Assembly (NCBI GenBank): GCA_025360125.1
Contig: JANYCU010000012.1
Location: forward strand, 89,445 to 153,444
Direction of reading: 5' to 3'
From: Armatimonadota bacterium
GTDB lineage: Bacteria; Armatimonadota; Fimbriimonadia; Fimbriimonadales; Fimbriimonadaceae
Length of the DNA stretch: 64,000 nt
Of this stretch, positions 5,810-39,086 are shown one piece after another. Position numbers and translations under genes: made by a program. Positions within the stretch are counted from its first letter, which is position 1. The number at the start of each line of letters is the position of its first letter. The notes beneath the pieces are model-generated. The model was given only the letters and a program-made list of their open reading frames with translations. It was not told where the DNA came from and searched no databases.

Positions 5810-6778
5810 CTACAGCCAATCCTTCCGCTTAAACTGCCACAGAATCAAGAGGCTAGAAACCACCATTAGCCCAAGACAATAGACGTAGCCGTATTTCCAC
5901 CCCAATTCAGGAATATCCTTAAAGTTCATGCCGTAAACTCCGGCGATAAGCGCGCTCGACATGAGGACGGTCGAAATGACCGTCATTTTCTTCATGACTT
6001 GGTTCAAATTATTCGACACCGTCGAAAGGTGGATGTCGAGCAATCCGGTCAAAGCATCTCGGTTCGTATCAACCAATTCAGTCAATCGCAACGTGTTGTC
6101 GAACAAATCGTGGAAGTAAGGCGCGACTGGGTCAGTAACAAAATCCAATTCGCGGCGAAGTAGCGAATTCATCACGTCGCGAAAAGGACCAAGGCGGCGA
6201 CGCATGTGAAGCATACGCCTCTTGATGACCAACAGGTCGCGCATGCGATGGATGTCGCCCTCGTATATTTGGTCCGATATCTCGTCGATTCGCTCCTCAA
6301 TCGCATCGAGGCGCGGAAAATAGTCATCCAAGATCGAATCCAGCAAGGCAAAAACGATGTATCCAACCTCTGGCTTGGAAAGAATCATCTTCGTTTCCCA
6401 TCGCTTCCACAGAGTCAGCAAGCACGGAATTTTGGTATGCGAGACGGTGACAATCGTCTGCCCCTGGACAAAGATGCCGACCTCGTCATATTCCTCTTCC
6501 CCACTCTCGCTTCCAACGACCGCCGGGGCAACCAAGAATACATGGTCGTCAAACTCCTTCAGTTCTGGGCGTTCTTCCCGACCAACCGCATCATCAACCG
6601 CCACCGGATGAAATTTAAAGTCATCCGTGAGCTGTTTGGCCACTCGAGCGGCATCGTCATCAAAGATATGAATCCACGTAACTTCCGTTCCATTGCGAAA
6701 CCGCTGAAGCGCGGTTTCGTAATCAATCTCCGATATTTTCCTGTCGGGACTAATCGCGAGGGCTTTGGATTCGATCAT
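5810..6778 (-). CDS. corA: CorA family magnesium transporter
   Basis: A pentameric inner-membrane Mg2+ (and Co2+) channel. The 322-residue product has the usual family length: an acidic cytoplasmic domain, a long stalk helix (about 150-260) and two C-terminal transmembrane helices. The signature YGMNF is at the end of the first, followed by a basic tail KRKDWL. The variant PELGW loop after GMN is normal for bacterial homologues. It is encoded 4 bases downstream of the large PA14/DUF1080 gene on the same strand. There is no obvious functional link, but they may share a transcript. Confidence 0.95.
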   Translation of the reverse strand: MIESKALAISPDRKISEIDYETALQRFRNGTEVTWIHIFDDDAARVAKQLTDDFKFHPVAVDDAVGREERPELKEFDDHVFLVAPAVVGSESGEEEYDEVGIFVQGQTIVTVSHTKIPCLLTLWKRWETKMILSKPEVGYIVFALLDSILDDYFPRLDAIEERIDEISDQIYEGDIHRMRDLLVIKRRMLHMRRRLGPFRDVMNSLLRRELDFVTDPVAPYFHDLFDNTLRLTELVDTNRDALTGLLDIHLSTVSNNLNQVMKKMTVISTVLMSSALIAGVYGMNFKDIPELGWKYGYVYCLGLMVVSSLLILWQFKRKDWL

Positions 6779-6782
6779 AGGA

Positions 6783-9700
6783 TTAAAGTTTTCGTATCCG
6801 AATGTTTCGATAGGCTACTACTTCACCATGGTCTTGGAAAGCAATGTGCCCGGTTGCGTACATGCCAAATTCATTCCAGTCCTTGTACTTGCTCTTCGCT
6901 ACTCGCTCCTTCCAGTCGGCTGAGTCCTTCTCATACTCGAGGATTTTAGCCCCGTTCATCCAATGCTCAACGTGTTTGCCTTTCGACAGAATTCGAATCG
7001 AATTCCATTCATTTGCCTGCAAAACCACCTTCTGCGACGGCGCATACAGTGCATATGCCGAGCCCGCGGACGTGAGAGGATTCTTGCCGTCGCCATGCCG
7101 AGCATCATCCAGAACCTGCATTTCCATGCCAGTTTCAAACGTCGCATTCTTGGTTTCCATTACATGGTAAATCACACCGGAGTTGCCGCCTTCGGAAATC
7201 TTCCACTCCAGTCTGAGGTCAAAGTCGCCGTATTGTTCTTTCGTCATGACATCGCCACCCTCGACACCAGGAACATACGCCATGATTCCATCGGCAATCA
7301 CCCAGCCTTTTGGCATGTCGGTGCGCTTGTACCCGCGGAACGAGCTTAGACTTGACCCATCAAACAAGAACTGGAATCCCAGAGCTTTCTCCTCGGCACT
7401 CAACAAATTTCGAGCGGCTACCGCCTTCACTGGGTTAACTTTGCCCGCCCGATTTGGAACGTTGTTGACCGTTGTCCAGGCCTCGGTTGACCACATCAGC
7501 TCGCCACTAGCCGATTGAAGTTCGGATGGCATTTTGAAGTAAATGATGCGGTTTGCCGCCTCGCCATCAAACTCAAGGAAGAGTTTCTTTCGGTCAGAAC
7601 TCAGGCTAGCCGACTTAACTCGCAGTTCCTTCTCATCGACCTTTGGTCCACCATAAGTGTTCTCCGGAACAAACGTATAGCTATCCACATAGAAGTCCGA
7701 AAGGTAGTACGGCAAGCCGTTATCCTTCAAAGGCTCGGTAAATTCGATCTCGGCACCATTTGCCATCGGTCGAACCGCCAACATCTCAAACGTCGTCTTC
7801 GCGTTGTAGGTCAATCGCTGAAGGCCAAATCGCTCCTTCCCTTCCTGACCCCAGTTACCCGTGGACCCAATTCCGCCCACATAGATTGATTGGTCAGGGC
7901 CGATCACGACGCGGTTAATCCCCGCCTCAAGCCCCTGGGTCATTCGGAAAGCCGTTCCCTGGTATTCCCCGTTTACCTTCTCCATGAAGACTCGTTTCAA
8001 GCCACCGTGAGTGACGTCACCAACGATCATTTGCCCTTTGTAGGGGCCATATTCAAACGGAGCTGGCTGGCTCGTCGAGTTTCCGATTTCTCCTTCAGGG
8101 AACCAAACCGTGGGCAACGTATCCTTAACGTTTTTCATTCCAACCGGGTCAACCGATCGATTGCCATAGAACGCGCCAGCTTTCAAAGCGATCAATTTAC
8201 AGGCGGGAATCCAGTCACCCTGGTTATCGGTAATGAAGATTTCACCCTTCTGATTCTTCGCAATTCCGTTAGGAGTTCTCAGTCCTGCCGCTACATACAC
8301 AAAGTCCCCAGTGGCCATGCTGATCTTCATGACCCTTCCCCGGTCAATATTCTGCTCGGCCGTGCTACGTCCACCAGCGTCAATACCAATGGCAAGGTTC
8401 GCATAAAGGTAGCCCTTGTCTTCGATCAGTCCGAAAGTAAATTCATGGAAGTTTGAGGTCACTCCGAACTTGTTCGCCAAGGTGTAGTACTCGTCAATAA
8501 TTCCATCGCCATCGAGGTCTCTTAAACGAGTGATCTCCTGCTTTTGGGCAATATAGATGTCTTTGCCAACAATCTTGATGCCAAGTGGTTCGGCGAGTCC
8601 CACCGCAATCCGCTTAATTTTGACCTTGCTAGGGTCACCCAAGGTCGTTCCGCTTAACTCATAAACGGCTCCGTCTGCATCCCAAGTACAAACCAACATG
8701 CGCCCATCGGGGTAGAAGTCAATCCCGCCAACCCGAGGGTTGAAATCTTTTGGACGGGGGGTCGTTAACGTAAACGAAGGGTGAACCTCGGTCTCAGGTC
8801 GTCCGTCTCCTGGCCGTTGAGGAAATAAAGCATCAATGACTTTCTTGATGCCTGGGTTCACAACGTGTACTTCATCCGCGACGGTCTCAAATGCTTCTTC
8901 AGGTACCAAATCCCAATTTGTATCGCCTGGTTTCTTCCACTCAAGCTGCAGAAATTCGTCCGGAGTGTTGTTAAAATACTCAACTCGAATAGCGTGGGAA
9001 CCGACCCCAAGCTCCACCGCGCCTTCCTTCGAAGTCGCCTCATGAATTCCGTCATTGTCGATTATTTTTTGATCGCGAATAAAGAGCCTCGAACCGTCAT
9101 CCGAACCCAGTCTAAATTGATATTTTCCGGCGGCAGCGATCTTCACCCAACCCGAAATGTTCACGTAAAACTTGTCTTTGATTCCAAAATCGCTGGCATC
9201 CGCAAACGCAATCTGGTCGATTTTCTTGTTGATGTTTGGCGTCTGGTTTGGTACTAGCCGAGGAATCACTAAAAGGGCACGATCAAGTTGATAGGCTCGA
9301 TAAGCGAGTCCTTTCTCTCTTGCATCGCCCTTTGCTTGGCTTCCGCCACCACCAAGAGGATCAATCGAGGCCAACAGGTCAGAACTTGACTCAGTGCCAG
9401 CCGTTGGCGCATCAAAAAACGCATCGACAAATGCGTCGTTTGTCGTAATTTCCAACTCGTTATTGCCCTTGAAAACTGAGTATTTGGCACCGGAAGTCTT
9501 GAAGTCTTTAAAAATCCCATTCGCTTTTCCGATAGTGACCAAGAGAGACATCGTTCCCATGTTCCTCGGGACGAACACTCCTTTTTGATCGTCTCCGACC
9601 CTGAATTCACGACGAAGGCCAATTGGCTTACCATCACGCCAAAGCATTGTTGGAGTCTCATTGACTCGGATCGTCTTGCCTGCAACCTTAAAATCGTATT

Positions 9701-10132: not shown

Positions 10133-11791
10133 TCACCGGATATTAAAGTACTTTGCTTCGGGATGATGAACAATGATCGCACTCGTGCTCTGTTCTGGGG
10201 ACAGCATGAACTCATCCGTCATCTCAATCCCAATATCTTGCGGGTTCAAAAGTTCAAATAACTTTGATTGGTCCTCAAGGTTCGGACATGCAGGATAGCC
10301 AAATGAGTATCGCGCTCCGTGATACTTTGCGCTAAACAGCAACCTCATTTCGTCCGGTTCTTGGTCATCAATACCCATTTCCTGGCGGACAATCTTGTGC
10401 CAGTACTCAGCCAAAGCCTCGGCCGTCTCGACGCCCATGCCGTGGGTAAAAAGATAGTCCTGAAAATCTCCCTTCTTAAATAGCTCCTGCTCTTTCCTAC
10501 TGACCTCAGAACCAACCGTCACAACCTGAAATCCAACAACATCAGGTTCGGTACCAACGGGACGAAAATAATCCGAGAGACATGAGAGCCGACCGTCTCG
10601 CTGGCGCGGAAAAGAAAACCGCATCCGCTCCGTTTTCGAGTCATCCTGGTAGATAATTAGATCGTTTCCGTCGCTATGACAGGGGAAATAACCCCACTTA
10701 ACCCTTGGTTGCAAAACATTCGCCAACTCTCGACTAAGCCGCTCAAAGATTGGGTCTACATTTTCCTTCAGCCAGTCGTTGAATTCCAGGTTCCCCATTC
10801 CGTCTTGGCGCTTAAACTGCCACTGCCCCCGATACAAAGCAATGGGGTTGATGTACTTGTACAGTTCGAAGATGTCAAATTTGGTTTGCTTTTTGGCCCC
10901 GTAAAACGGAAGCTCCGGACTCTTCTCAAGCGGCACGATTTCCGACCGAACTCCGTTAAACACATACAAGTCTTTGTGCAGAACATCAACGCGGTGCGAG
11001 GTTACACGTGGAGTTAATTCTTCAAGGTCCTCGGTCTCTTCGATTTCGTCATTGACCGTCTCCATCAACCGCAAGCCTTCAAAGGCATCTTGGGCATAAA
11101 AGACCTTCCCCTTATAAATCATTCTCAGGTCCTCCTCGACGTAACCGCGAGTAAGAGCTGCTCCGCCCAAAATAACTGGGAATCCCGCCAGGCCCCGTTC
11201 ATTGAGTTCCAGCAAGTTGTCCCTCATGATCAAAGTGCTCTTTACCAGCAACCCGCTCATGCCAATAACTTGACAATTTTCCCGTTGCGCTCCCTCAATT
11301 ATCGCGTTGATCGACTGCTTGATTCCGATATTGACAACTCGGTAGCCATTGTTGGAGAGGATAATGTCAACCAAGTTCTTGCCAATATCGTGGACGTCGC
11401 CAGATACGGTGGCCAAAAGAATCGAGCCCTTTTCGGATCCTTCGACTTTCTCCATCAGCGGCTCTAATTGCCGCACCGCCGTCTTCATGACTTCTGCGCT
11501 TTGCAAAACAAACGGCAGTTGCATTTTGCCCGAGCCAAATAGCTCACCGACCGTTTTCATTCCATCGAGCAAAATCGTATTGATAATCTCGAGCGGAGTG
11601 TAGGTTTCGAGCGCAGTTTCGATTCGGGTTTCAAGGTTCTTTTTGATCCCGTCGACTATGTGCTTTTTGAGTTGATCTTCCGTGCTTAAGCCTTCAAAAG
11701 CGTTAATTCCGGTATCGCTGACTCGAACATCTTCGAATCTTTTCATGAGTTCGATTAGCGGATCATAGGTACAAACTCGCTCGTCGGACAT
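10133..11791 (-). CDS. metH: Methionine synthase, cobalamin-binding and reactivation half
   Basis: The 552 residues correspond to the C-terminal half of cobalamin-dependent methionine synthase. A helical cap comes first (about 30-115). The B12-binding Rossmann domain (about 120-250) has the lower-axial-ligand motif GDVHDIGKN, plus SGLLVKST and GGAAL. The AdoMet-binding reactivation domain (about 320-545) contains PNLEDQSKLFELLNP near its end. The homocysteine and folate barrels are missing, so they must be encoded elsewhere as in known split MetH systems. I chose the ATG at 11791 (MSDERV) over upstream extensions that lack similarity. It is divergent from the beta-barrel gene at 11909. Confidence 0.92.
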   Translation of the reverse strand: MSDERVCTYDPLIELMKRFEDVRVSDTGINAFEGLSTEDQLKKHIVDGIKKNLETRIETALETYTPLEIINTILLDGMKTVGELFGSGKMQLPFVLQSAEVMKTAVRQLEPLMEKVEGSEKGSILLATVSGDVHDIGKNLVDIILSNNGYRVVNIGIKQSINAIIEGAQRENCQVIGMSGLLVKSTLIMRDNLLELNERGLAGFPVILGGAALTRGYVEEDLRMIYKGKVFYAQDAFEGLRLMETVNDEIEETEDLEELTPRVTSHRVDVLHKDLYVFNGVRSEIVPLEKSPELPFYGAKKQTKFDIFELYKYINPIALYRGQWQFKRQDGMGNLEFNDWLKENVDPIFERLSRELANVLQPRVKWGYFPCHSDGNDLIIYQDDSKTERMRFSFPRQRDGRLSCLSDYFRPVGTEPDVVGFQVVTVGSEVSRKEQELFKKGDFQDYLFTHGMGVETAEALAEYWHKIVRQEMGIDDQEPDEMRLLFSAKYHGARYSFGYPACPNLEDQSKLFELLNPQDIGIEMTDEFMLSPEQSTSAIIVHHPEAKYFNIR

Positions 11792-21816: not shown

Positions 21817-22728
21817 TCACTTCGGCTCGCCAAATTCTTGCACAACGACGGTCGCGTCATTCGGAGCCAGTTTTCGAAGTCGCATGATCGCCTCCTTATA
21901 TTCAGGCAGATGCTTTCGTTGGCCCTCAATAATCGCAATATTGTGCCATACCGCCATGTCTCGCAAACCGAGTTCATCGCATCGGCGATAGAATCGAATC
22001 GCCGTATCATAATCCTTCCGCCCATGAGCTTTATAGGCTTTGGCAAAAAGCCAATCAGTCGATAGCGGATTCCAATAAACGGGCACAAATGCGACGACCG
22101 CCATGACGACAACCCCAATTCGCGCCAGCCACATCTTCTTCGTCTCGATTAGGCCAATCAACGCTCCCGCAGCGGCTCCAGAAATGTGGGCAACATTGGC
22201 CACTGGTAGCACCCCAAGCTGATCCAAGACGATACAAAGAACTCCCCAACCCGCAAAGGTCATCAGTATTCGGTCGCTAAAATATCGCTTAAGTTCCGGG
22301 TCCGATTCGCGAACGATCCAGCCAAATCCTACAATCGCAAACCCAACTCCCGAAAACCCAATTCCCGCGTGAGTCGTAGCTAGCTGCCAACCTGAACTAA
22401 TAATGGCGGTGATGAGGACAAACAAAAGCGACTTGACCGATCCAAATTTTCGCTCCAAGACCGGACCCAAGATCATCAGCCAGTACATGTTGAAGAAGAT
22501 ATGGATGACTTCGCGGTGAACAAACGCCGAAGTGATGAGCGCGTACCATCGCCCCTCAAAGATTTGCGTGATTGGATAGTAGCCAAATTTCGAGAACGTT
22601 GCCCACGACGAATCCTTGGTCGAATTGATCGCCAAAAAGACCACCACGCTCCAGGCTAAACAGAGGATCGTGACGATGGGATAGGGCTTCGAGAAAACAG
22701 CTGACGGCTTAATGGACTGATTGTACAT
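21817..22728 (-). CDS. Rhomboid intramembrane serine protease with C-terminal helical repeats
   Basis: The 303-residue inner-membrane protease has about six or seven membrane helices. The loop helix HREVIHIFFNMYWLMILGP (the H/N oxyanion region), the catalytic serine in GFSG (usual GASG; x varies) and the catalytic histidine in VAHISGAAAGALIG are all in place. The last 80 residues (AKAYKAHGRKDYDTAIRFYR) look like a TPR-type pair on the cytoplasmic side, which is not universal in the family. Substrate unknown. A protease is well supported. Confidence 0.9.
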   Translation of the reverse strand: MYNQSIKPSAVFSKPYPIVTILCLAWSVVVFLAINSTKDSSWATFSKFGYYPITQIFEGRWYALITSAFVHREVIHIFFNMYWLMILGPVLERKFGSVKSLLFVLITAIISSGWQLATTHAGIGFSGVGFAIVGFGWIVRESDPELKRYFSDRILMTFAGWGVLCIVLDQLGVLPVANVAHISGAAAGALIGLIETKKMWLARIGVVVMAVVAFVPVYWNPLSTDWLFAKAYKAHGRKDYDTAIRFYRRCDELGLRDMAVWHNIAIIEGQRKHLPEYKEAIMRLRKLAPNDATVVVQEFGEPK

Positions 22729-27011: not shown

Positions 27012-27419
27012 ATGAACTGGAGTTTGTTGCTAAAGCTATCTGCATTTGGAGGCGTCATGGCCTTCGCAACCATCAATTTCATACCATTTGAATTTGAATT
27101 CGTCGTTTGGCTCTTCGTTTACGGGTTCTGCGCCTACGCAATCTCAAAATCGTGCCAGGATCGATTCTTTACCCATGGGTTCCTGCTTGGCATCATCAAC
27201 TGCATCTTTTACTCGGCATTCCATTTAGCCTTTTTTGAGTCATACACATCAGCCCATACCCTCCTGATGAGCCAGGTCAACACGATCGTCCCAGCACCCG
27301 CAAATCAGCGTCCAATCGTTCTCGCAATCGGGGTCGTGATGTGCATTCTAGGTGCATTACTTCAGGGTCTAATCTGTCACTTCGTTTCCAAAAAAATGCA
27401 AAAGCCAGTTGCAGTTTAA
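27012..27419 (+). CDS. Four-helix membrane protein, first gene of the paralogue operon
   Basis: The 135-residue polytopic protein has four hydrophobic helices (about 8-27, 31-48, 55-78 and 102-125) and a short basic C-terminus. Its stop codon touches the ATG of the next gene, so the two are translationally coupled. No family recognised, although the layout resembles small bacterial membrane proteins of unknown function. Its position suggests it belongs to the same system as the five anchored proteins that follow. Confidence 0.65.
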   Translation: MNWSLLLKLSAFGGVMAFATINFIPFEFEFVVWLFVYGFCAYAISKSCQDRFFTHGFLLGIINCIFYSAFHLAFFESYTSAHTLLMSQVNTIVPAPANQRPIVLAIGVVMCILGALLQGLICHFVSKKMQKPVAV

Positions 27420-28847
27420 ATGAAGTCCAAAATCGTAAAGTCAGTCCTCATCTTCGTGGCAGGCGGAGCCATTCTGTTCGGCGGACTTAAGTTCAAGCAG
27501 CATCTTGACTTCAATGCAAATGAGACAGAAATCCGACGACTTCTCACCCACGCCGAGTCGCGAGGATTCATCACCAATGGCGACAAATTTGTTGTTAAAC
27601 GCCCCGATGAGCAAAACGCGTGGATCGAAATTGGACAAATACTGCAAAAGCGCGATCCATCGAAAAAGAACCAACCAGCCTTTGACAATCAGTACGCTGG
27701 CACCCTGCTAAATCGTGCTGAGATCAGCGATATTGGCCTCATCGACTCCGCCGTCGCTCTCAACAAAACCGACCGAGAAAGGATCATCGAAGTCCTGAAC
27801 AAAAAAGGCCACCTTCAAATCCCCTTCAATTTCAACCAAGGATACTTGATGCTGTACGACCAAATGATGCCCTTACGAATGCTCGTAAACGACATTTGCC
27901 TCATGGCGCTATCACATGGCTATAAACGAGACAGTGCTGCCGCAATCGCCAATCTTGAAGCGGCTTACCTCATCGGTAGCGAATTGATGGCCCAGCGAGA
28001 CACCATTCCTCGACTGGCGGGAACAGTCATCTATCAAACGATCTCGAAGACGGCACTGCGAATCATCGAATTTGATCCATCAATGATTCACCCCCTAAAA
28101 CAACTCAATGAAAAATGGAGCCCGCTGTTCGATGAAGACCCGTTCGACGACTACAAGTGGATTTTCCTGGAGCACCTCGCAGCATGCCGAAACTTCGATA
28201 GCCCGGAAATGGATCGTCCCGTCCCTTTCTTCCCGCTGGACAAATTCGTCAAACGACCGAACATCGAAGATGGTGAAAAAGCCAACGAAATCCGACCAGG
28301 CGACTATCTCCCAAATTCTTACAACATGCGAAAGTACATGTTAACCACGCTTCAACAATGGATGCCCATTTTCGACATCGTTTCAGATCCGAAATCCAAA
28401 CGTGACAGTACAACCAATAAATCAATCCTCGACCAAATCAATTGGGAGACCGATTGCCCCCCGCCGCTAAAAACAATTTTCGCAAGCCTCCTGACTGAAA
28501 AGGACAAAGATGTAGAAATGCCTTTTGCTGCATCCTATTTGGACCTCAACCGGGAAATGTTTCGTCAACTCGAATACAAACAAGCATACGGAACCTTTGC
28601 CCCCAAGCTATTCACTACCATTCGATCGTTCCATCAAACCGACAAATTTTCCATATCCCCCCGAGGAAAAGGAATCCAAATTGGCGCCGGAGTTCTCGAT
28701 TCCGACGGCCTCCACAAAGTCAGGGTTTGTTTTCCTTATTCGGGTGGCCTCACGGCAGCGACATATTCCAAGACAATGAGCAAACTCCGCGACGGGTCAC
28801 TTAAAGTGAATGCGCCATCGAACACACCCCCAATGATCAGCCCGTAA
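27420..28847 (+). CDS. Membrane-anchored paralogue A (unknown function)
   Basis: The 475-residue protein has a single N-terminal anchor (IVKSVLIFVAGGAILFGGLK) and an extracytoplasmic body that is mainly helical. Near residues 65-75 it has PDEQNAWIEI, a motif shared with D and E. Near 255-315 it has the array's signature: FDSPEMD, a proline-rich stretch, GDYLPNS and a terminal LQQW. It is the most divergent member at the N-terminus. It starts directly after the preceding stop. No enzymatic motif is visible. Confidence 0.75.
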   Translation: MKSKIVKSVLIFVAGGAILFGGLKFKQHLDFNANETEIRRLLTHAESRGFITNGDKFVVKRPDEQNAWIEIGQILQKRDPSKKNQPAFDNQYAGTLLNRAEISDIGLIDSAVALNKTDRERIIEVLNKKGHLQIPFNFNQGYLMLYDQMMPLRMLVNDICLMALSHGYKRDSAAAIANLEAAYLIGSELMAQRDTIPRLAGTVIYQTISKTALRIIEFDPSMIHPLKQLNEKWSPLFDEDPFDDYKWIFLEHLAACRNFDSPEMDRPVPFFPLDKFVKRPNIEDGEKANEIRPGDYLPNSYNMRKYMLTTLQQWMPIFDIVSDPKSKRDSTTNKSILDQINWETDCPPPLKTIFASLLTEKDKDVEMPFAASYLDLNREMFRQLEYKQAYGTFAPKLFTTIRSFHQTDKFSISPRGKGIQIGAGVLDSDGLHKVRVCFPYSGGLTAATYSKTMSKLRDGSLKVNAPSNTPPMISP

Positions 28848-28873
28848 GGCTTAGTAGTATAGGGAAGCGAGCC

Positions 28874-30298
28874 ATGAAGCCACTACCAATCGCGTTAACC
28901 ATTATTGGCGGAGCCCTTTTCCTCACTGCCGGCCTCTCGCTCAAGGCGAACGCGGATCGTGGTCGGCTCGAAGATCAAGTTAGGACCCAATTGTCCGCGA
29001 TCAAGGCAATGGGATTTTGCACGACTAGCGCCGAATTCGCCAAGGAAAGTGAACCGGACAAATCGGACGCCTGGTGGGACCTCAAGCAATATTTGACCGC
29101 CAAGGCATCCGAGAATTACTCACCGAACACATTCGATCCGCGCTCAATGATTTTTGTCGCCGGGCAAGCCGATCTACCTACGATCCGAACCTACCTCCAA
29201 CAAAGCCAGGCGGCGCGCATCGCCGTTTTGTCGGCAATGCAGCAACATAAGTCACTGACGATTCCCGAATCTTTGTCTGGCGGAAGCCCGCCCTTTGTTG
29301 ACGGTCAAATGCGGCATGCCATACAAGATTTCATCGTTGCCGCCGAAAGCGAAGCGATGATCGGCAAGCAAGCCCAGGTCATGCAAAATTTGAACGCTGC
29401 CGCATATCTTGCCAACAGCTTGGTTCGTGAATGGACTAGCTATATAGGCACCAACTGTTGGCAAGTGACCATCATCCCAGGCGCGCTTCGAGTCATGGAG
29501 ATCGCTCCAACCATGGCTCCCGAAATTGAATTGTTCCTCAACCAACCGAATTTGATCGCCGAAGCGAATTCGAAAAAAATATGCGAAGTCTATTTTCTGA
29601 TCGCTTTGGCCCAAATTCAGTCAAGAGATTCTCCCTTGATTGACCGCGCCGCTCGGCCAAAATGGCTTCAAACGGTCGTTCATTCGCCGAGCATTGAAGA
29701 GATATGGGACGCCACTAAGGACAAATCCGATGGATATATACCCAAAAGCGCCCTGTGCCTCAATGCAATCCATCAATCCTTGAGCCGCTGGACGCCTCTG
29801 TTAATGAAAGTAAAAAATGGATCGTCAATTACCAAGGCCGAATATGACCGAACTGATGAGCCATTCACCGGAATGAACAAAGACTTATCCGACGTCCTGA
29901 CACTTGGAAAAGATTTTGACCCGACTGACATGATTAACGAAGTATCCGAACTCAAGACTCTCAAGTCAATGATCGTCAAGATTGTGGCAATCAAGCGGAA
30001 AAGTGGTGCGTACCCGAAAGCTCTCAGCGAAATTGTCGGTCCCTCCGACGTGAAGAATGTCGCATATCATAACAATATCAATGGATTTTCGGTTAATTCC
30101 ATGACCACTGATCCATCGACAGCTGCGTTGCGAGTCCGCATCATTTTCCCGCCGAGCCAACGCTTCCCCGCTCGCACGTTGGCGATGTACCGCGACCAAC
30201 TTAAAAGGGCGAGAGAAGGCAAACTCGACGTGTTGCATCCCGAACCCAAAAAAGTACTGCCTAAATGGCTGGGTGGGCCGCGAAAGCCCTCACCATGA
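28874..30298 (+). CDS. Membrane-anchored paralogue B (unknown function)
   Basis: The 474-residue paralogue has anchor MKPLPIALTIIGGALFLTAG, the shared DAWWDL variant of the NAW motif, and the signature RDSPLIDRAARPKW ... DGYIPKS ... LSRW near 250-310. The C-terminal part (KSGAYPKALSEIVGPSD) resembles the G-x-YP-x-x-L pattern seen in pseudopilin-like C-termini, but no prepilin leader is present. The last bases overlap the start of paralogue C (ATGA). Confidence 0.75.
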   Translation: MKPLPIALTIIGGALFLTAGLSLKANADRGRLEDQVRTQLSAIKAMGFCTTSAEFAKESEPDKSDAWWDLKQYLTAKASENYSPNTFDPRSMIFVAGQADLPTIRTYLQQSQAARIAVLSAMQQHKSLTIPESLSGGSPPFVDGQMRHAIQDFIVAAESEAMIGKQAQVMQNLNAAAYLANSLVREWTSYIGTNCWQVTIIPGALRVMEIAPTMAPEIELFLNQPNLIAEANSKKICEVYFLIALAQIQSRDSPLIDRAARPKWLQTVVHSPSIEEIWDATKDKSDGYIPKSALCLNAIHQSLSRWTPLLMKVKNGSSITKAEYDRTDEPFTGMNKDLSDVLTLGKDFDPTDMINEVSELKTLKSMIVKIVAIKRKSGAYPKALSEIVGPSDVKNVAYHNNINGFSVNSMTTDPSTAALRVRIIFPPSQRFPARTLAMYRDQLKRAREGKLDVLHPEPKKVLPKWLGGPRKPSP

Positions 30299-31632
30299 AG
30301 CCGCTAAAAATCATCATTGGAATCGTAGGCGGTGCAATCGTCATCACTGGCGGCCTCGCCCTCAAATCCAAAATCGCTTATGACCAAGACGGCCAAGCAA
30401 TCACCAAACTCATTGCCGAATACAAAGCCCTCGGAGTCCCAACCACCAAAGCAGCTTTTACAAAGCTCTATCCGCAAATAACCCTGACTGCTCAAGATGA
30501 AAAAAACCTGGTGGGGCAGATCCCCCGAGGTCCATCCCAAATTGCAAAGGCTATCCTGCTCGGCTGCATTCCTAGCGATGCACCTTTCTTAGAAAGAGTC
30601 CTTCAACAAACAAAGAAGCAGCGAGATGAATTCATATCTGGTCGTCGTGTTCGGTACCTGCTGATGATTGATGACAATTTGGTGTTAAGTTTTCTTTTGG
30701 CCGCCCTTCTAGAGTCATACAAACACAATCCTGGCTCGATGGAATTAAATCTCAAGCAAGCCGTTTCAATAATCAATTACAGCATTATCTGGCCCCGATC
30801 AATCGACGCCTATGTCGGAGCCTACATGTCAAGGTATGTTCTCCAAACTTTCCTTCGCATCATCGAACAGTCCCCGACAATGACATCGAAAATTCTCTCA
30901 ATGATGGGCAATCCGAATTTAATTCTTCCCATCAACACAAAGGGTGTCATTTACGAACAGTTCTTGAACGATCTTGTTGCCGCACGTCACCTCGACTCCC
31001 CCATTCTCGACAAAAAAAGACCTCCGTCCTTTCTGCGCCGATTTATCAAAGTGCCTACCGACGATGAGATCCTTAACGCGATGAAGGATCATTCTGGGGA
31101 CTATGTCCCTGAAAGTAAAACTGCCCGATTTATTCTCCGAGAGCGGCTTGAAAAATGGAATTCAGTAATCAAAGCGGTTGCCAAAGCCACGGATCCCGAG
31201 GTTCTACCCAGTTCAGATGACCTCCTTGAAGCCAGCACACTTTCGACCTCAATACCGTCCGATATAGCAAACTTTTTCAACCAGGACGAAACGCTGACCC
31301 AAGGAACTAAAATCTTCCAGTCCAACACTGACTTCCGAGTCCTCCTTCAAATCGTCACCCACGCGCTAACAATAAAATCATCCAAAGGAGTCTTTCCAGA
31401 AAAACTGGCCGAAGTCCTGCCACCCGCGGACCCCAACGACTATCGCTACCAAACCATTCCTGGAGGTTTTAAAGCCGAGATCATTTGGCATGACGCCAAA
31501 CGACCATCCTATGTTCACTATCGCATTTCTTATCCCCTCGAATCGTCTGTCGGGGTTAGACTGATGGCAATCTATCGAAACCAAATTGCCAAAGCGAAAA
31601 AGGAATTAGTTTCGTCCTCACCCAAAGGCTAA
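30295..31632 (+). CDS. Membrane-anchored paralogue C (unknown function)
   Basis: The 445-residue paralogue starts at ATG 30295, overlapping the stop of B. After the anchor comes QAITKLIAEYKALGVPT, which is identical to the same stretch of paralogue E, showing C and E are the closest pair or share a converted segment. The signature HLDSPILDKKRPPSFL ... GDYVPES ... LEKW sits near 232-290. It lacks the NAW motif. The C-terminus has KGVFPEKLAEVLPPADP. Confidence 0.75.
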   Translation: MKPLKIIIGIVGGAIVITGGLALKSKIAYDQDGQAITKLIAEYKALGVPTTKAAFTKLYPQITLTAQDEKNLVGQIPRGPSQIAKAILLGCIPSDAPFLERVLQQTKKQRDEFISGRRVRYLLMIDDNLVLSFLLAALLESYKHNPGSMELNLKQAVSIINYSIIWPRSIDAYVGAYMSRYVLQTFLRIIEQSPTMTSKILSMMGNPNLILPINTKGVIYEQFLNDLVAARHLDSPILDKKRPPSFLRRFIKVPTDDEILNAMKDHSGDYVPESKTARFILRERLEKWNSVIKAVAKATDPEVLPSSDDLLEASTLSTSIPSDIANFFNQDETLTQGTKIFQSNTDFRVLLQIVTHALTIKSSKGVFPEKLAEVLPPADPNDYRYQTIPGGFKAEIIWHDAKRPSYVHYRISYPLESSVGVRLMAIYRNQIAKAKKELVSSSPKG

Positions 31633-31636
31633 CAAA

Positions 31637-33019
31637 ATGAAGCCGCTCCACATTGCAATCGGTATCGGCGGAATCGCCGTCGTGGTCCTTGGGGTCATGG
31701 CCCTAAGGTCCAAACTCGAATACAACCGAGACGTGAGCGAAATCTCAAATCTCCTTGGCGAAATAAAGGCGTCGGGTGCCCCTACCAACATCGAAGACTA
31801 CAGTCCAAGAATTCCCGACTCTCAAAACGCGTGGGTAGAGCTCAACTCCGTCTATCTTCCTCGCGAAGGAGAAGCGATATTCGTTAAGTTCTGCTCTCCA
31901 TTTTCAGCAGAGCTGATTTCTTATGGCACCCAAGCCACCCTTCCCACCATCCGAAACTATGTTACATTCAACCAAAAGTGGCGGACCGATACTGAGAAGA
32001 TCTTGACCAAGAAATCAAAACTTCAACTGCCACTGGAATTCACATTTGGGACTAGCTTGCCCCGATCAAATGCCTTGCGCGGCCTCGCAGAAAGCTCACC
32101 GGACTACTGCCTTGCAGCATTGCAAGCAGCCTACGACAACCAAGGCGACGACTGTATAAGGCAATTAAGCTCTGCCATTCGAATCTCCAATGAACTATTC
32201 AGGATGAATCAAAAGGACTCAGTCTATTTTGGCGTGACCTCGCAACTTGAGATTTACCGGACGGTCTTCCACATCGCGGAGCAAAATCCAACCTTGGGTC
32301 AAAGAGCCAGAGAATTAATCCAAACTCCCTCACAATTGGCTCATACCGACCTCAAAAAAGTCCTTGACTGTGAGTTTTTGAAGCAAATCACGTTGCTCAG
32401 GCAACACGACGACCCCTCGATCGACAAATCGACCCTGCCCTACCCTCTCAGTTTGCTTCAAAATCTTGCCACCGGAACTTCAACATCGCTAGACCGTCAA
32501 TTACCAGTTGGTGACACTATTCCACGAAGCAAGAAAGTCCGGCAATTTTTCATCGAGCGGCTCAGAATCTGGAAGGACCTCACTCGATCACTTCGCACAT
32601 CCAACGTCTCCGAAATGATCCCAACAGTTCGGAAAAGTCTGTCAAAAATGGAGATGTGGCGAGGAGCGCCCGAAGCAATCACCGATCCAAAGATTATCGG
32701 TGAAGAAATGTCTGATGACCAAGAAAATTGGAATGATCGTCTCTGGACCGACGCTAACACGGTAATTTGGCAATTGATCGACCAGAAGCAGAAGTCCGGA
32801 AAATTCCCGACTTCCCAATCAAACTCTCAACAAGAACAAACGAAGGTACTGACATTCGCTGCAAATCAAAATTCAGTTGCATTTGTTTCAAAGACAAAAT
32901 TTCGGGGACGTGACGTAAAGCTTGGATTTCCAATGTCCCTCATCCGGGCTGGCACATTCGAACCAGTGAACGATGCGAGCATCCAAACGCGAATTAAAGG
33001 TTTGAAGCGATGGCGATGA
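31637..33019 (+). CDS. Membrane-anchored paralogue D (unknown function)
   Basis: The 460-residue paralogue has anchor MKPLHIAIGIGGIAVVVLGV followed by IPDSQNAWVELN. The signature is partly degraded: HDDPSIDKSTLPYPL ... DTIPRSKK ... LRIW near 256-310, with GDY replaced by GDT. The C-terminal domain is shortened and less similar. It starts 4 bases after C and overlaps E by four bases (ATGA). Confidence 0.75.
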   Translation: MKPLHIAIGIGGIAVVVLGVMALRSKLEYNRDVSEISNLLGEIKASGAPTNIEDYSPRIPDSQNAWVELNSVYLPREGEAIFVKFCSPFSAELISYGTQATLPTIRNYVTFNQKWRTDTEKILTKKSKLQLPLEFTFGTSLPRSNALRGLAESSPDYCLAALQAAYDNQGDDCIRQLSSAIRISNELFRMNQKDSVYFGVTSQLEIYRTVFHIAEQNPTLGQRARELIQTPSQLAHTDLKKVLDCEFLKQITLLRQHDDPSIDKSTLPYPLSLLQNLATGTSTSLDRQLPVGDTIPRSKKVRQFFIERLRIWKDLTRSLRTSNVSEMIPTVRKSLSKMEMWRGAPEAITDPKIIGEEMSDDQENWNDRLWTDANTVIWQLIDQKQKSGKFPTSQSNSQQEQTKVLTFAANQNSVAFVSKTKFRGRDVKLGFPMSLIRAGTFEPVNDASIQTRIKGLKRWR

Positions 33020-34482
33020 AACCCTTCACCGTCGCTATCAGCATCGGCGGAATCGCGCTCCTCATGGTCGGAGCATCCGCAATTAAATCCAAAATTGCCT
33101 ACGACAACGACGAGCAGGCAATTACTAAACTCATCGCCGAATATAAAGCCCTCGGCGTTCCAACCAATGGTGCCGGGCTTCAGCAACCGATCTCCCCTTC
33201 CTTAAATGCCTGGACCGAAATTGGCCCGATGCTCCTGTCCAAGCAAGGCAACGGTACTGGATTGCTCTTCAAATCTGGCGAGGCTCTCGAACTGTTGCTG
33301 ACTTGCAGCAAACAAGACCTACCGCTTATTAAGAAATACCTCGCCGAAAACAAATCACAAAGGGACAAAATCGAGGCGGCTCTCAATGCAAAGCCAAAAC
33401 TCCAGATCCTCCATGATTACGATGAAGGATTCTCCCTTCTCTTGCCCGAGTTCGCCGCAATTCGACCCCTCATCCGCGAATACTGCCTTGCCGCCTACGC
33501 CGCCGGAATCGAAGGCAACATGGCCGAAGTCAAACGCAACCTCGACCTCGCCAACCGCTTTGTTTCCCATTGCGCCCATCGCACCGAATTTATCGCCATT
33601 GCTGTCGAAGCAGGCCTCCACAAGAACTTATTCCAAACCGGTTTTCAAATCATCCAGGCTAATCCTTCCTTGTCGCCCCAAATTCAGAAACTATTAGCCA
33701 GCTACGATGCCATCGACCAACCTGATTTCAAGCTGACCGCCGAAAGTGAATTCGTTGCCCACCTCGCAACCGCGCGCTACTTCGATTCCTCCGAACTGGA
33801 TCACCCCACCGTTCCCAAGTTCCTCGAAGGGCTATTTAAACAGAAAAGCCCGGATGAGCTGATGAAATTGGGCGGAGCTCACCACGGCGACTATATTCCC
33901 ACCAGTCACGCAATGCGTGCATTCCTCAGATCTCGGCTAGAGATGTGGTTACCATGGTTTCAAGATTACAAGCGAACGGGCAAGCCTTCGGTTCAGGGTT
34001 TCGAGCGAGCAACCGACTTTATGCAAGAGCTCCCAAGCCAATTGGCCTTTATGGCACCATCGAGTTCGCCGACCAATGACATGATTTTCCAGATCGTGGG
34101 TCTTCCTCGGCAGCATAGCGACTTGGCCAAAAATATTTTTCGAGCCATGGAAATCAAGGAGAAATCAGGCAAATATCCGACCACCCTCGACGCGATTGGG
34201 ATTCCCATTCAACCAACGGTACTCAACGATCACTTCACCATCGAATCAAGCTCGGCCGGAATCACGATCAAAGGTAACCATGGAATCACCGATGGCGAAC
34301 TCGAAGGCACAAGCCTTTCCTTCCCCGTGACCTTGTCAATCTCGCCGAAACTACTGAGCAAATATCGGGACACAGTGAAAAACTTTCGCCTCGGAAGAAT
34401 CAACGTTGCAGGGACGAGTACACGAGCAACCAAGCTTAGACCACCACCGATTCCCCCAGGCGCACCACCACGGGCGCCTTAG
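33016..34482 (+). CDS. Membrane-anchored paralogue E (unknown function)
   Basis: The 488-residue paralogue is the last of the operon. The ATG at 33016 gives the MKPF start matching its relatives; ATG 33010 would add two residues. It has the NAWTEIG motif, the signature YFDSSELDHPTVPKFL ... GDYIPTS ... LEMW near 255-315, and KSGKYPTTLDAIG at the C-terminus, ending in a proline-rich tail (PPPIPPGAPP). No terminator directly follows; structured DNA lies at 34548-34611. Confidence 0.75.
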   Translation: MKPFTVAISIGGIALLMVGASAIKSKIAYDNDEQAITKLIAEYKALGVPTNGAGLQQPISPSLNAWTEIGPMLLSKQGNGTGLLFKSGEALELLLTCSKQDLPLIKKYLAENKSQRDKIEAALNAKPKLQILHDYDEGFSLLLPEFAAIRPLIREYCLAAYAAGIEGNMAEVKRNLDLANRFVSHCAHRTEFIAIAVEAGLHKNLFQTGFQIIQANPSLSPQIQKLLASYDAIDQPDFKLTAESEFVAHLATARYFDSSELDHPTVPKFLEGLFKQKSPDELMKLGGAHHGDYIPTSHAMRAFLRSRLEMWLPWFQDYKRTGKPSVQGFERATDFMQELPSQLAFMAPSSSPTNDMIFQIVGLPRQHSDLAKNIFRAMEIKEKSGKYPTTLDAIGIPIQPTVLNDHFTIESSSAGITIKGNHGITDGELEGTSLSFPVTLSISPKLLSKYRDTVKNFRLGRINVAGTSTRATKLRPPPIPPGAPPRAP

Positions 34483-34683: not shown

Positions 34684-35427
34684 TTAATTTTTCTCAAGAA
34701 ACGGATTCTCGCGCGTCGCCATCGCCGCAATCCACTGTTTCTCTTGTTCAGCGTACGCCTCTAATGGCAGGTCAACCCGCCCGTAACAACACTCCGTCTC
34801 ACCCGTTCGAACCGCCCAACCCGCGTCGCCCCAACTGTAGTGCCACCACTCGTCCCTGCAATTCGAAAATCCTGCTCCAAGCATCGTCTCAACCAAGATG
34901 GTGCGATTGCGATGCGCAGCCTCACTCAAACCCAACGTATAGGTCGGGGCCGCGCCAAATCGATCATAAGGCGAAACCACATCAATACTCTCTCCCGAAG
35001 GCGTGACCAACCAAACGTCCACCGCCGCGCCAGTACAGTGCCCCGGAGGGGCTTTCTGGTCAGTCGGAGCCACCCATCGGCAAACTGTCCGTCGCAAAGC
35101 CGTGTCGGTCCGGTCCGGAAAGACTTCCTTTCCGCAGTTCCAAACAAAGTCATAGATTCGCTGCTGACGATCAAAAGGCCGCCAAGCATCAATCACCCCG
35201 AGCAAAATTCCCTCGGGAAGCGACTGGGCCGCCCGCTCCAACATCTCCGCAACGTGGCGTCGCAAAAATGGAATCACCGCCGGACGCAAAATCCTCACCG
35301 ATGGACTGACCACGGCAAGGTCTGCCAATGGTTCGCCGTTCTCAATCTCATCAATGAGATTGAGCAAGCGAATGGGCTCCGGACTTCCCTTCGTGCGGTC
35401 CCATTTCACAGGCTTTCTAACCGTCAC
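34684..35427 (-). CDS. D-alanyl-D-alanine dipeptidase, VanX/DdpX type
   Basis: A zinc metallopeptidase of family M15 that hydrolyses D-Ala-D-Ala, for peptidoglycan recycling or vancomycin-like resistance. The 247 residues carry the substrate arginine in DAWRPFDRQQ and metal ligands in GHCTGAAVDVWL (the x-H-x-x-G-x-A-x-D pattern) and EWWHYSWGD. No vanH or vanA ligases are near, so a recycling role is more likely. There is no signal peptide. It overlaps the SLBB gene upstream by 4 bases (ATGA), so the two are co-translated. Confidence 0.9.
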   Translation of the reverse strand: MTVRKPVKWDRTKGSPEPIRLLNLIDEIENGEPLADLAVVSPSVRILRPAVIPFLRRHVAEMLERAAQSLPEGILLGVIDAWRPFDRQQRIYDFVWNCGKEVFPDRTDTALRRTVCRWVAPTDQKAPPGHCTGAAVDVWLVTPSGESIDVVSPYDRFGAAPTYTLGLSEAAHRNRTILVETMLGAGFSNCRDEWWHYSWGDAGWAVRTGETECCYGRVDLPLEAYAEQEKQWIAAMATRENPFLEKN

Positions 35428-36404
35428 TTCTCGACCACTTCCACAACGTCGCCCGGCTCTAAATAAATATCCTTAGTCTTGTCCTTGTCAAAATCACTCC
35501 ACCGAATCTTGACCTCAGGCTTATTTACTTTCGAAATCGAACGCACAATCAGGAAGTTCTTCGCGTTCAAAACTCCCCCTGCTTGCCTTACCGCTTCTTT
35601 AGCCGTCAGACTCGCCGTCCATTCAAGATTGATCGGTTTCCGAACTAATCCCGTCACCGCGATGTACTGAACATCCTCTTTAGATTCAACCCGAACCGAA
35701 TCGCCCCGCTGAAGTTTGATGTCGCCCTTGGTCGCCAAATCAAACGGCCCCATCGAGATTCCTCTTAAAATAAAAACGCGCTTCGCATCGCCCCGAGCGG
35801 ATACTCCGCCTGCCATTTCGACCGCGGTCTTGATCGTCATTCCTTCTATAAAAGGAATTGAACCAACTTTCGTGACTCCACCGACGACATAAACCTGGGC
35901 GCGAGCCTGCTCGATCGGAATTCGAATGCGATCACCCGGACGAACGAGTCCGTTTATTGGGTTTGGCCGACCGTTGATGTCGGTCGAAATCGAAATATTG
36001 ACGTCCCCCGAATCCAGAACGTCTACCAGACTAATCAGCTCTTTGGCCGTCATCCCGTGCGGTGCGGTCAGCAACAATTCGTTCTTGATCGCGCCCGTTA
36101 TCGTGACCGCCGACGCCCGATCCGACACCAATTTCACCACGATGTGCTCTCGGAACCCCAGGGCCTCCGAAATCTTTGCCTCAACCATCGACTGAATCAA
36201 TTCAGGAGTACGAGTCACGACGACAATGCGCCCAAGCGAAGGAATATTGATCGAACCGTTCGACAAAACCCGGTATCGACCACTCAGACGGGTCTCGGTT
36301 TCGCAGTGAATGACCACAACATCCCGAAACTGTGCGACCTGAGTTGCAGGTTGTTGCCCAAACCCAAGGCATGGAACCGCCAGTAATGTTGTGAGAAAAA
36401 TAAT
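35424..36404 (-). CDS. SLBB-domain polysaccharide-export-like protein, probable ATT start
   Basis: The exported protein of about 326 residues has a signal-like start (IIFLTTLLAVPCLGFG, cleavage before QQP), a polysaccharide-export domain (about 25-100, YRVLSNGSINIPSLGRI), and two or three SLBB-type beta-grasp domains (about 110-320, PGDRIRIPI, GGVTKVGSIPF, LEPGDVVEVVE). No ATG, GTG or TTG lies in frame between the tRNA-Phe gene and the mature protein. The only plausible starts are ATT 36404 (its A is the last A of the tRNA CCA) or ATT 36401. The first domain would otherwise be lost. Confidence 0.75.
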   Translation of the reverse strand: MIFLTTLLAVPCLGFGQQPATQVAQFRDVVVIHCETETRLSGRYRVLSNGSINIPSLGRIVVVTRTPELIQSMVEAKISEALGFREHIVVKLVSDRASAVTITGAIKNELLLTAPHGMTAKELISLVDVLDSGDVNISISTDINGRPNPINGLVRPGDRIRIPIEQARAQVYVVGGVTKVGSIPFIEGMTIKTAVEMAGGVSARGDAKRVFILRGISMGPFDLATKGDIKLQRGDSVRVESKEDVQYIAVTGLVRKPINLEWTASLTAKEAVRQAGGVLNAKNFLIVRSISKVNKPEVKIRWSDFDKDKTKDIYLEPGDVVEVVEK

Positions 36405-36479
36405 GGTGCCACAAGCCGGACTCGAACCGGCGACCCAAGCATTTTCAGTGCTTTGCTCTACCAACTGAGCTACCGTGGC
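36404..36479 (-). tRNA. tRNA-Phe (GAA)
   Basis: Minus-strand cloverleaf: acceptor GCCACGG/TTGTGGC, D-arm GCTC...GAGC, anticodon loop CTGAAAA with anticodon GAA closed by AAGCA/TGCTT, T-arm GCCGG TTCGAGT CCGGC, discriminator A and encoded CCA. Confidence 0.97.
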
Positions 36480-36486
36480 ACAAAAC

Positions 36487-36562
<76 letters not shown>

Positions 36563-36574
36563 GTTGGAAAGGAA

Positions 36575-36604
36575 AGTATGACATTTTCATGCGCCTAAGA
36601 TCAA
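36575..36604 (-). promoter_or_regulatory. Promoter of the tRNA-Asp/tRNA-Phe operon
   Basis: On the minus strand -35 TTGATC (36599-36604) and -10 CATACT (36575-36580) are 18 bases apart. The -10 ends 12 bases before the mature tRNA-Asp. The SLBB and dipeptidase genes may be read from the same promoter. Confidence 0.65.
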
Positions 36605-36794
36605 CCTCTGTGAAAAGATGCATACGATCAATGCCATTCCTTGCTTTTATTATGTCGCTTTCACGACATATATTGAGGGAGGTTGAACCTAAATTCAACC
36701 AAGGCTCTGCTCATAAAAATGTAAGAACTCTTAGCAATCACGCTCTCGGTCAATGAACTTTTATAGAAAATAGACCTTCCATCATTAGAACAGT

Positions 36795-38614: not shown

Positions 38615-39061
38615 TTAATCCCACAAATACCGTTCATCGTAAGGAATGCCGTGATCTTCCAGCATTTTTCTAAATTCGTCCTTGAAAGACAGATTCATAT
38701 GATGGGCCTTTTGGTTTAAAACGTATTTTGCCGTATTCGCAACATCAGATTCCGAAACACCGAAGATGCCATAGCCCACTTGCCAATGAAAGTCATCGAC
38801 ACCCATTGATTGTAGCCATCGACCTGATCCAACCTTTACAATCTCGACGGCCTTAGAAATTGTTTGTGTTCGTGAAAGGGCGAACAGCGCGTGCACATGA
38901 TCAACGTCCCCACCGATTGCAATCGGAGTATGGCCCTCACTTTTCAAAATCCCTGCCATGTAACTGTATAGGCGTTCATCTAGGCTGGGATCGAGAACTG
39001 GAACTCGATTTTTCGTGCTAAAGACCAATTGAACTGGCACGCGGGCAAGAGATTGAGGCAT
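38615..39061 (-). CDS. RAYT / Y1 (IS200-like) transposase
   Basis: A single-strand DNA transposase of the HUH superfamily. The 148 residues start with the RAYT-like MPQSLARVPVQLVFSTKNR. The HUH pair is in VDHVHALFAL, and the catalytic tyrosine is in AKYVLNQKAHH. The C-terminus DEFRKMLEDHGIPYDERYLW matches the group. All key residues are intact, so the protein may be active. The ATG at 39061 is the family start; an extension to 39079 adds six non-conserved residues. Confidence 0.93.
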   Translation of the reverse strand: MPQSLARVPVQLVFSTKNRVPVLDPSLDERLYSYMAGILKSEGHTPIAIGGDVDHVHALFALSRTQTISKAVEIVKVGSGRWLQSMGVDDFHWQVGYGIFGVSESDVANTAKYVLNQKAHHMNLSFKDEFRKMLEDHGIPYDERYLWD

Positions 39062-39086
39062 CGATAGGCATGTTACCAATTTCCAG

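What the first reader, a model, noticed from the sequence alone, without database searches (positions are those of the whole stretch)
27012..34482. Tightly coupled operon of one four-helix protein and five paralogous anchored proteins of unknown function
Genes A-E (27420, 28874, 30295, 31637, 33016) all begin with a near-identical MKP... membrane anchor. They share a central signature DSPxxD ... GDYIPxS ... Lxx W at about residues 250-315, and most end with a GxYPxxLxE-like segment. Stops and starts touch or overlap (ATGA twice, adjacency, 4 bases), so all are made together in fixed order. The five copies have diverged strongly, and C and E share an identical 17-residue stretch that suggests gene conversion. 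I know of no described system with this plan. It could be a multi-subunit surface complex or an expanded ligand-binding set.
Basis: partly seen in the sequence, partly recalled or inferred. Interest (0 to 1): 0.72.

Follow-up and report, generated by a model that had tools for sequence, protein, structure and literature searches.

The report
Tandem membrane-anchored proteins with pseudopilin-like heads
Five neighbouring genes encode divergent copies of a membrane-tethered protein found across the phylum Armatimonadota, whose end domain has the shape of a secretion-pilus subunit although nothing suggests it is processed into a pilus; it is an undescribed but widespread family rather than a unique new system.

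Summary
Two details fail. The anchors are not near-identical, and the identical 17 residues of C and E are coded with 7 silent differences in 51 bases, so recent gene conversion is not supported. The interpretation needs changing. The five are full-length members of a family with no Pfam or NCBIfam model of its own, found in 163 of 201 sampled Armatimonadota genomes and often in tandem. Each has an N-terminal membrane helix, about 300 mostly helical residues and a C-terminal domain. In phylum-wide members that domain matches GspG, the type II secretion major pseudopilin (profile E 6e-8). Gene E's domain, folded alone, matches pilins and PulG/GspG (Z 8.1 to 6.4); the next unrelated fold scores 4.7. 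No member scanned has a convincing prepilin cleavage site, a few are predicted lipoproteins, and the family neither tracks GspG nor sits beside prepilin genes. Best reading: extracytoplasmic tethered proteins that use a pseudopilin head without entering a filament. Partner and role are unknown. The five-copy array is a local expansion shared by three related genomes.

The parts
27012..27419 (+). Small four-helix membrane protein, 135 aa; within its family of 85 genomes found only in the three array genomes, other relatives mostly in Bacteroidota
   Evidence: no Pfam family at cut-off
27420..28847 (+). Gene A, 475 aa; signal anchor, helical domain, degenerate pseudopilin-like C-terminal domain
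   Evidence: orthologue of G009 6497-7891 (support 100/100)
28874..30298 (+). Gene B, 474 aa, same architecture
30295..31632 (+). Gene C, 445 aa, same architecture
   Evidence: groups with G002 10370-11734
31637..33019 (+). Gene D, 460 aa, same architecture
33016..34482 (+). Gene E, 488 aa, same architecture; AlphaFold2 model mean pLDDT 88.9
   Evidence: groups with the last array gene of G002 and G009 (99/97)
34057..34401 (+). C-terminal pseudopilin-fold domain of gene E (residues 348-462; pilin match over about 353-441)
28485..28802 (+). Corresponding C-terminal domain of gene A
   Evidence: alignment A7
29921..30226 (+). Corresponding C-terminal domain of gene B
   Evidence: alignment A7
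31282..31614 (+). Corresponding C-terminal domain of gene C
   Evidence: alignment A7
32702..33010 (+). Corresponding C-terminal domain of gene D
   Evidence: alignment A7

Best explanation
The five genes are a tandem expansion of a phylum-wide Armatimonadota family of extracytoplasmic, membrane-tethered proteins: N-terminal signal anchor (a lipoprotein signal in some relatives), about 300 mostly helical residues, and a C-terminal domain that shares ancestry with the major pseudopilin GspG. They are probably not made into a filament, because the prepilin leader is missing and the membrane helix is separated from the pilin helix by the helical domain. Most likely the pseudopilin head acts as a protein-contact module and the helical domain as the variable partner-binding or scaffold part; the co-transcribed, diverged copies then form a mixed complex on the outer face of the inner membrane. 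Shown: paralogy, family spread, predicted fold of the head, absence of prepilin sites in scanned members. Inferred: location, co-transcription, mixed complex, binding role.
For: Full-length profile match of the five to phylum-wide members, E 3.3e-18 over 404 columns. Family in 163/201 Armatimonadota genomes against 0/61 in a Bacteroidota sample searched with the phylum-wide profile. C-terminal part of phylum-wide members to GspG: probability 94.6%, E 6.4e-8; Pfam T2SSG 28.8 bits against cut-off 21 in one member, and cut-off-passing T2SSG matches at positions that coincide with family members in other genomes. Gene E domain alone: 18 best structural matches all pilins or pseudopilins, PilA4 Z 8.1, PulG 7.8, GspG 7.1-6.4, then unrelated PURA 4.7. 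No credible prepilin motif in any member scanned (one match, SITVPE, looks like chance), and clear lipoprotein signals in a few relatives, one of them in this genome. Presence independent of GspG: 31/40 with, 18/21 without, p 0.52. Prepilin-type genes within 5 kb in only 3 of 40 loci. Tandem arrangement in about half of the loci.
Against: Profiles of the five alone give no GspG match; the link runs through relatives and the predicted fold. Foldseek E-values for the domain are weak (best 0.11), and Z near 8 is only modestly above what unrelated models can reach. No experimental or expression data. The independence test used genomes of unequal completeness and does not exclude type IV pili in GspG-less genomes. 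Topology was read from hydrophobicity only. Nothing bears directly on oligomers or ligands.
Confidence: 0.5

Rival explanations
1. They are atypical minor or tip pilins that enter a type IV pilus or pseudopilus without a standard leader, presenting the helical domain at the tip, as proposed for ComZ of Thermus thermophilus.
For: Pseudopilin fold of the head. ComZ carries a large inserted domain, a hydrophobic helix at residues 5-27 and no predicted prepilin peptidase site (PMC6561018). Fimbriimonas has many PulG-type genes (79 reported in F. ginsengisoli, PMC4072686).
Against: The extra domain lies between membrane helix and pilin helix, unlike ComZ and GspK where it lies in the sheet. Some relatives are predicted lipoproteins. 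Family present without GspG, rarely near prepilin genes.
Confidence: 0.2
2. Each protein is an independent extracytoplasmic binding or sensing protein; tandem copies are an expanded ligand-binding repertoire, not one complex.
For: Strong divergence among copies (21-24% identity to gene A), copy number and order vary between relatives, many single-copy loci.
Against: Orthologous groups (E with its counterparts, A with its counterpart) are kept across the array genomes, which is not what fast turnover of a repertoire would give; tight gene spacing suggests joint production.
Confidence: 0.25

Closest known systems
GspG / PulG, major pseudopilin of type II secretion (Pfam PF08334)
   Same: Fold of the C-terminal domain; in many family members also the GxYP...DPF...LxY...YSxGxDxxDxG sequence line
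   Different: No prepilin leader, about 300 mostly helical residues between membrane helix and head; array copies have lost the DP and D-rich loop
ComZ of Thermus thermophilus (tip pilin with inserted beta-solenoid, PMC6561018)
   Same: Pseudopilin-like domain carrying a large extra domain, atypical N-terminus
   Different: Extra domain is a beta-solenoid inserted in the sheet; encoded beside competence pilins
GspK, tip pseudopilin with a helical inserted domain (described in PMC6561018)
   Same: Pseudopilin fold plus helical domain
   Different: Inserted between third and fourth strands; here the helices precede the pilin helix
CpaL of Caulobacter (pilin-like module plus vWA domain, PMC12607857)
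   Same: Pilin-like module combined with an unrelated domain
   Different: Pilin module carries a potential prepilin peptidase site and precedes the vWA domain

Membership tests
GspG/T2SSG pseudopilin | Pilin fold of long helix plus beta-meander | tested here: met
   predicted model only; gene E domain alone: PilA4 Z 8.1, PulG 7.8, GspG 7.1-6.4; whole-protein model also hits pilins over residues 359-442
GspG/T2SSG pseudopilin | Sequence match to T2SSG profile | tested here: inconclusive
   none for the window genes at E 1; above cut-off in a phylum relative; A2 family profile E 1.3e-4 at probability 54%, A5 E 6.4e-8, five genes alone no match
GspG/T2SSG pseudopilin | Prepilin leader with Gly-Phe-Thr-Leu-x-Glu type site | tested here: not met
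   absent in genes A-E; across the members scanned one chance-like pattern only
GspG/T2SSG pseudopilin | Conserved line DPW/DPF ... YSxGxDG (calcium-loop region) | tested here: not met
   lost in all array copies, kept in many relatives
GspG/T2SSG pseudopilin | Incorporation into a pseudopilus | not testable with these tools
   needs pilus purification; co-occurrence with GspG gives no support
Armatimonadota anchored pseudopilin-head family (unnamed, defined here) | Full-length homology: anchor, helical domain, C-terminal head | tested here: met
   hhalign A1 vs A5 E 3.3e-18 over 404 columns; searches
[quoted passage not shown]
   model has the helical domain before the pilin helix; placement in GspK and ComZ from PMC6561018

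The most novel reading that the evidence does not exclude
A phylum-wide class of membrane-tethered proteins has turned the pseudopilin fold into a non-filament assembly module, and tandem arrays such as this one build dedicated mixed complexes on the cell envelope of Armatimonadota.
Probability: 0.3. Interest if true: 0.6.

Novelty: new variant of a known kind. Interest (0 to 1): 0.36.

Why it matters
A large unnamed family, present in about four of five sampled genomes of a poorly studied phylum, gains a recognisable domain and hence a testable hypothesis: whether pseudopilin heads are used outside filaments. It would also correct automatic annotation, since family members can score as 'type II secretion protein G' without being part of that system.

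Tried and rejected
Pfam and NCBIfam on the six proteins: nothing usable. Whole-model Foldseek: no significant match; the helical domain hits mostly designed repeat proteins, so no fold is claimed for it. Profile search of PDB sequences: only weak helical-repeat matches. Gene conversion C/E: not supported. T2SS component: no co-occurrence or linkage. Promoter and terminator scan: no excess over shuffles, so one transcript rests on spacing only. Context of the small membrane protein in Bacteroidota: no shared neighbours seen, so no clue to function. Plasmid search with a phylum relative: no match. Planctomycetota, where I recall similar proteins from memory, could not be searched.

Full report
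Where it lies. The window is contig 41, bases 89445-153444, of a 4.13 Mb draft genome. One genome of the same genus in the sample has a contig of 5,231,762 bases and only one contig, which fits the 5.23 Mb chromosome of Fimbriimonas ginsengisoli (PMC4072686); the genus is therefore probably Fimbriimonas, phylum Armatimonadota (inference).

Observation. The five large ones are homologous beyond doubt (E 1e-36 to 1e-23; alignment). The central block exists with variants. The anchors are similar in kind but not near-identical (2-15 of 25 positions). The identical 17 residues of C and E carry seven silent differences and no long exact DNA match, so recent gene conversion is not supported.

The family. 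A profile of the five finds relatives in 18 of the 40 other genomes searched; an iterated set of 41 members was gathered from the loci. A 38-member profile finds the family in 163 of 201 Armatimonadota genomes, often several copies each, while a profile of phylum-wide members finds none in 61 Bacteroidota genomes. About half of 40 inspected loci hold two or more members in tandem. The window genome has further members on other contigs, among them one with a lipoprotein signal and the intact C-terminal motif. Full-length homology of the five to phylum-wide members is clear.

The array itself. In the 85 genomes of the family only three have the small membrane protein, and these carry the array between tsf and an M15 peptidase gene: this one (TM+5), G002 (TM+3) and G009 (2+TM+3). 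tsf and the peptidase are each kept in nearly all genus members but, judging by the listed positions, apart from each other elsewhere. The 13 array proteins form one clade (100/98); E, A and B/C have identifiable counterparts in the other two genomes, and the E group is always next to the peptidase. So the copies diverged before these species split and have been kept.

The C-terminal domain. In many family members the C-terminus reads GxYPxxL ... DPFxGxPLxY ... GFxxYSVGxDxxDDGG, the line of the major pseudopilin GspG. Profile comparison with twelve Armatimonadota GspG sequences gives probability 94.6% and E 6.4e-8; one member passes the Pfam T2SSG cut-off, and cut-off-passing T2SSG matches elsewhere in the phylum fall on family members. 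In the array copies the DPF and D-rich loop is lost, which is why their sequence alone shows nothing. The fold remains: gene E was modelled at pLDDT 88.9, and its domain alone, at 84.7, aligns best to PilA4 (Z 8.1, rmsd 2.7, 83 residues), a Shewanella pilin (7.8), PulG (7.8) and GspG (7.1 to 6.4), with the first non-pilin at 4.7. Foldseek E-values are not significant on their own.

Not a prepilin, probably not a T2SS part. None of the members scanned has a credible prepilin site; the membrane helix is at the very N-terminus and separated from the pilin helix by about 300 residues. Clear lipoprotein signals in a few relatives point to an extracytoplasmic body. Family presence is independent of GspG (31/40 with it, 18/21 without) and prepilin-type genes lie within 5 kb in 3 of 40 loci (a fourth pattern match there is in a transporter-like ORF). 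That Armatimonadota have T2SS at all is reported in PMC6668835.

Mechanism. Best reading: tethered extracytoplasmic proteins that use the pseudopilin head for contacts and the helical domain for a partner, made together from one operon and possibly forming a mixed complex. Only the architecture and family are shown; the rest is inference. The main rivals are atypical tip pilins, for which ComZ is a precedent (PMC6561018), and independent binding proteins.

The small membrane protein. Its closest relatives in the named collection are almost all Bacteroidota proteins of about 130 residues (31-40% identical) with no shared context seen, suggesting acquisition by transfer; its role with the array is unknown.

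Verdict. A real, undescribed (in the literature searched) and widespread family whose array in this window is a lineage-specific expansion; notable for the pseudopilin head, ordinary in most other respects.

Noticed in passing
window 36404-36562 (-): tRNA-Phe and tRNA-Asp genes lie inside the long ORF that holds the SLBB/Poly_export protein (35424-36698), so the ORF's N-terminal part is a mis-extension; the same tRNA pair lies near the array in G002 (L036 5575-5733).
   Followed up: partly
window 38615-39079 (-): IS200-type transposase (Pfam Y1_Tnp).
   Followed up: partly
G085:C13:22517-22756, G056:C200:2223-2444, G075:C13:119416-119640 and others: T2SSG-type matches inside open frames of 1550-1705 residues in several Armatimonadota genomes, possibly another non-pilin setting of the domain.
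   Followed up: no
window 27012-27419; L069, L070, L088 and others: The small four-helix protein is 31-40% identical to stand-alone Bacteroidota proteins that reach no Pfam cut-off.
   Followed up: partly
window 21817-22728 (-): Rhomboid-family membrane protease gene about 4.3 kb before the array.
   Followed up: no
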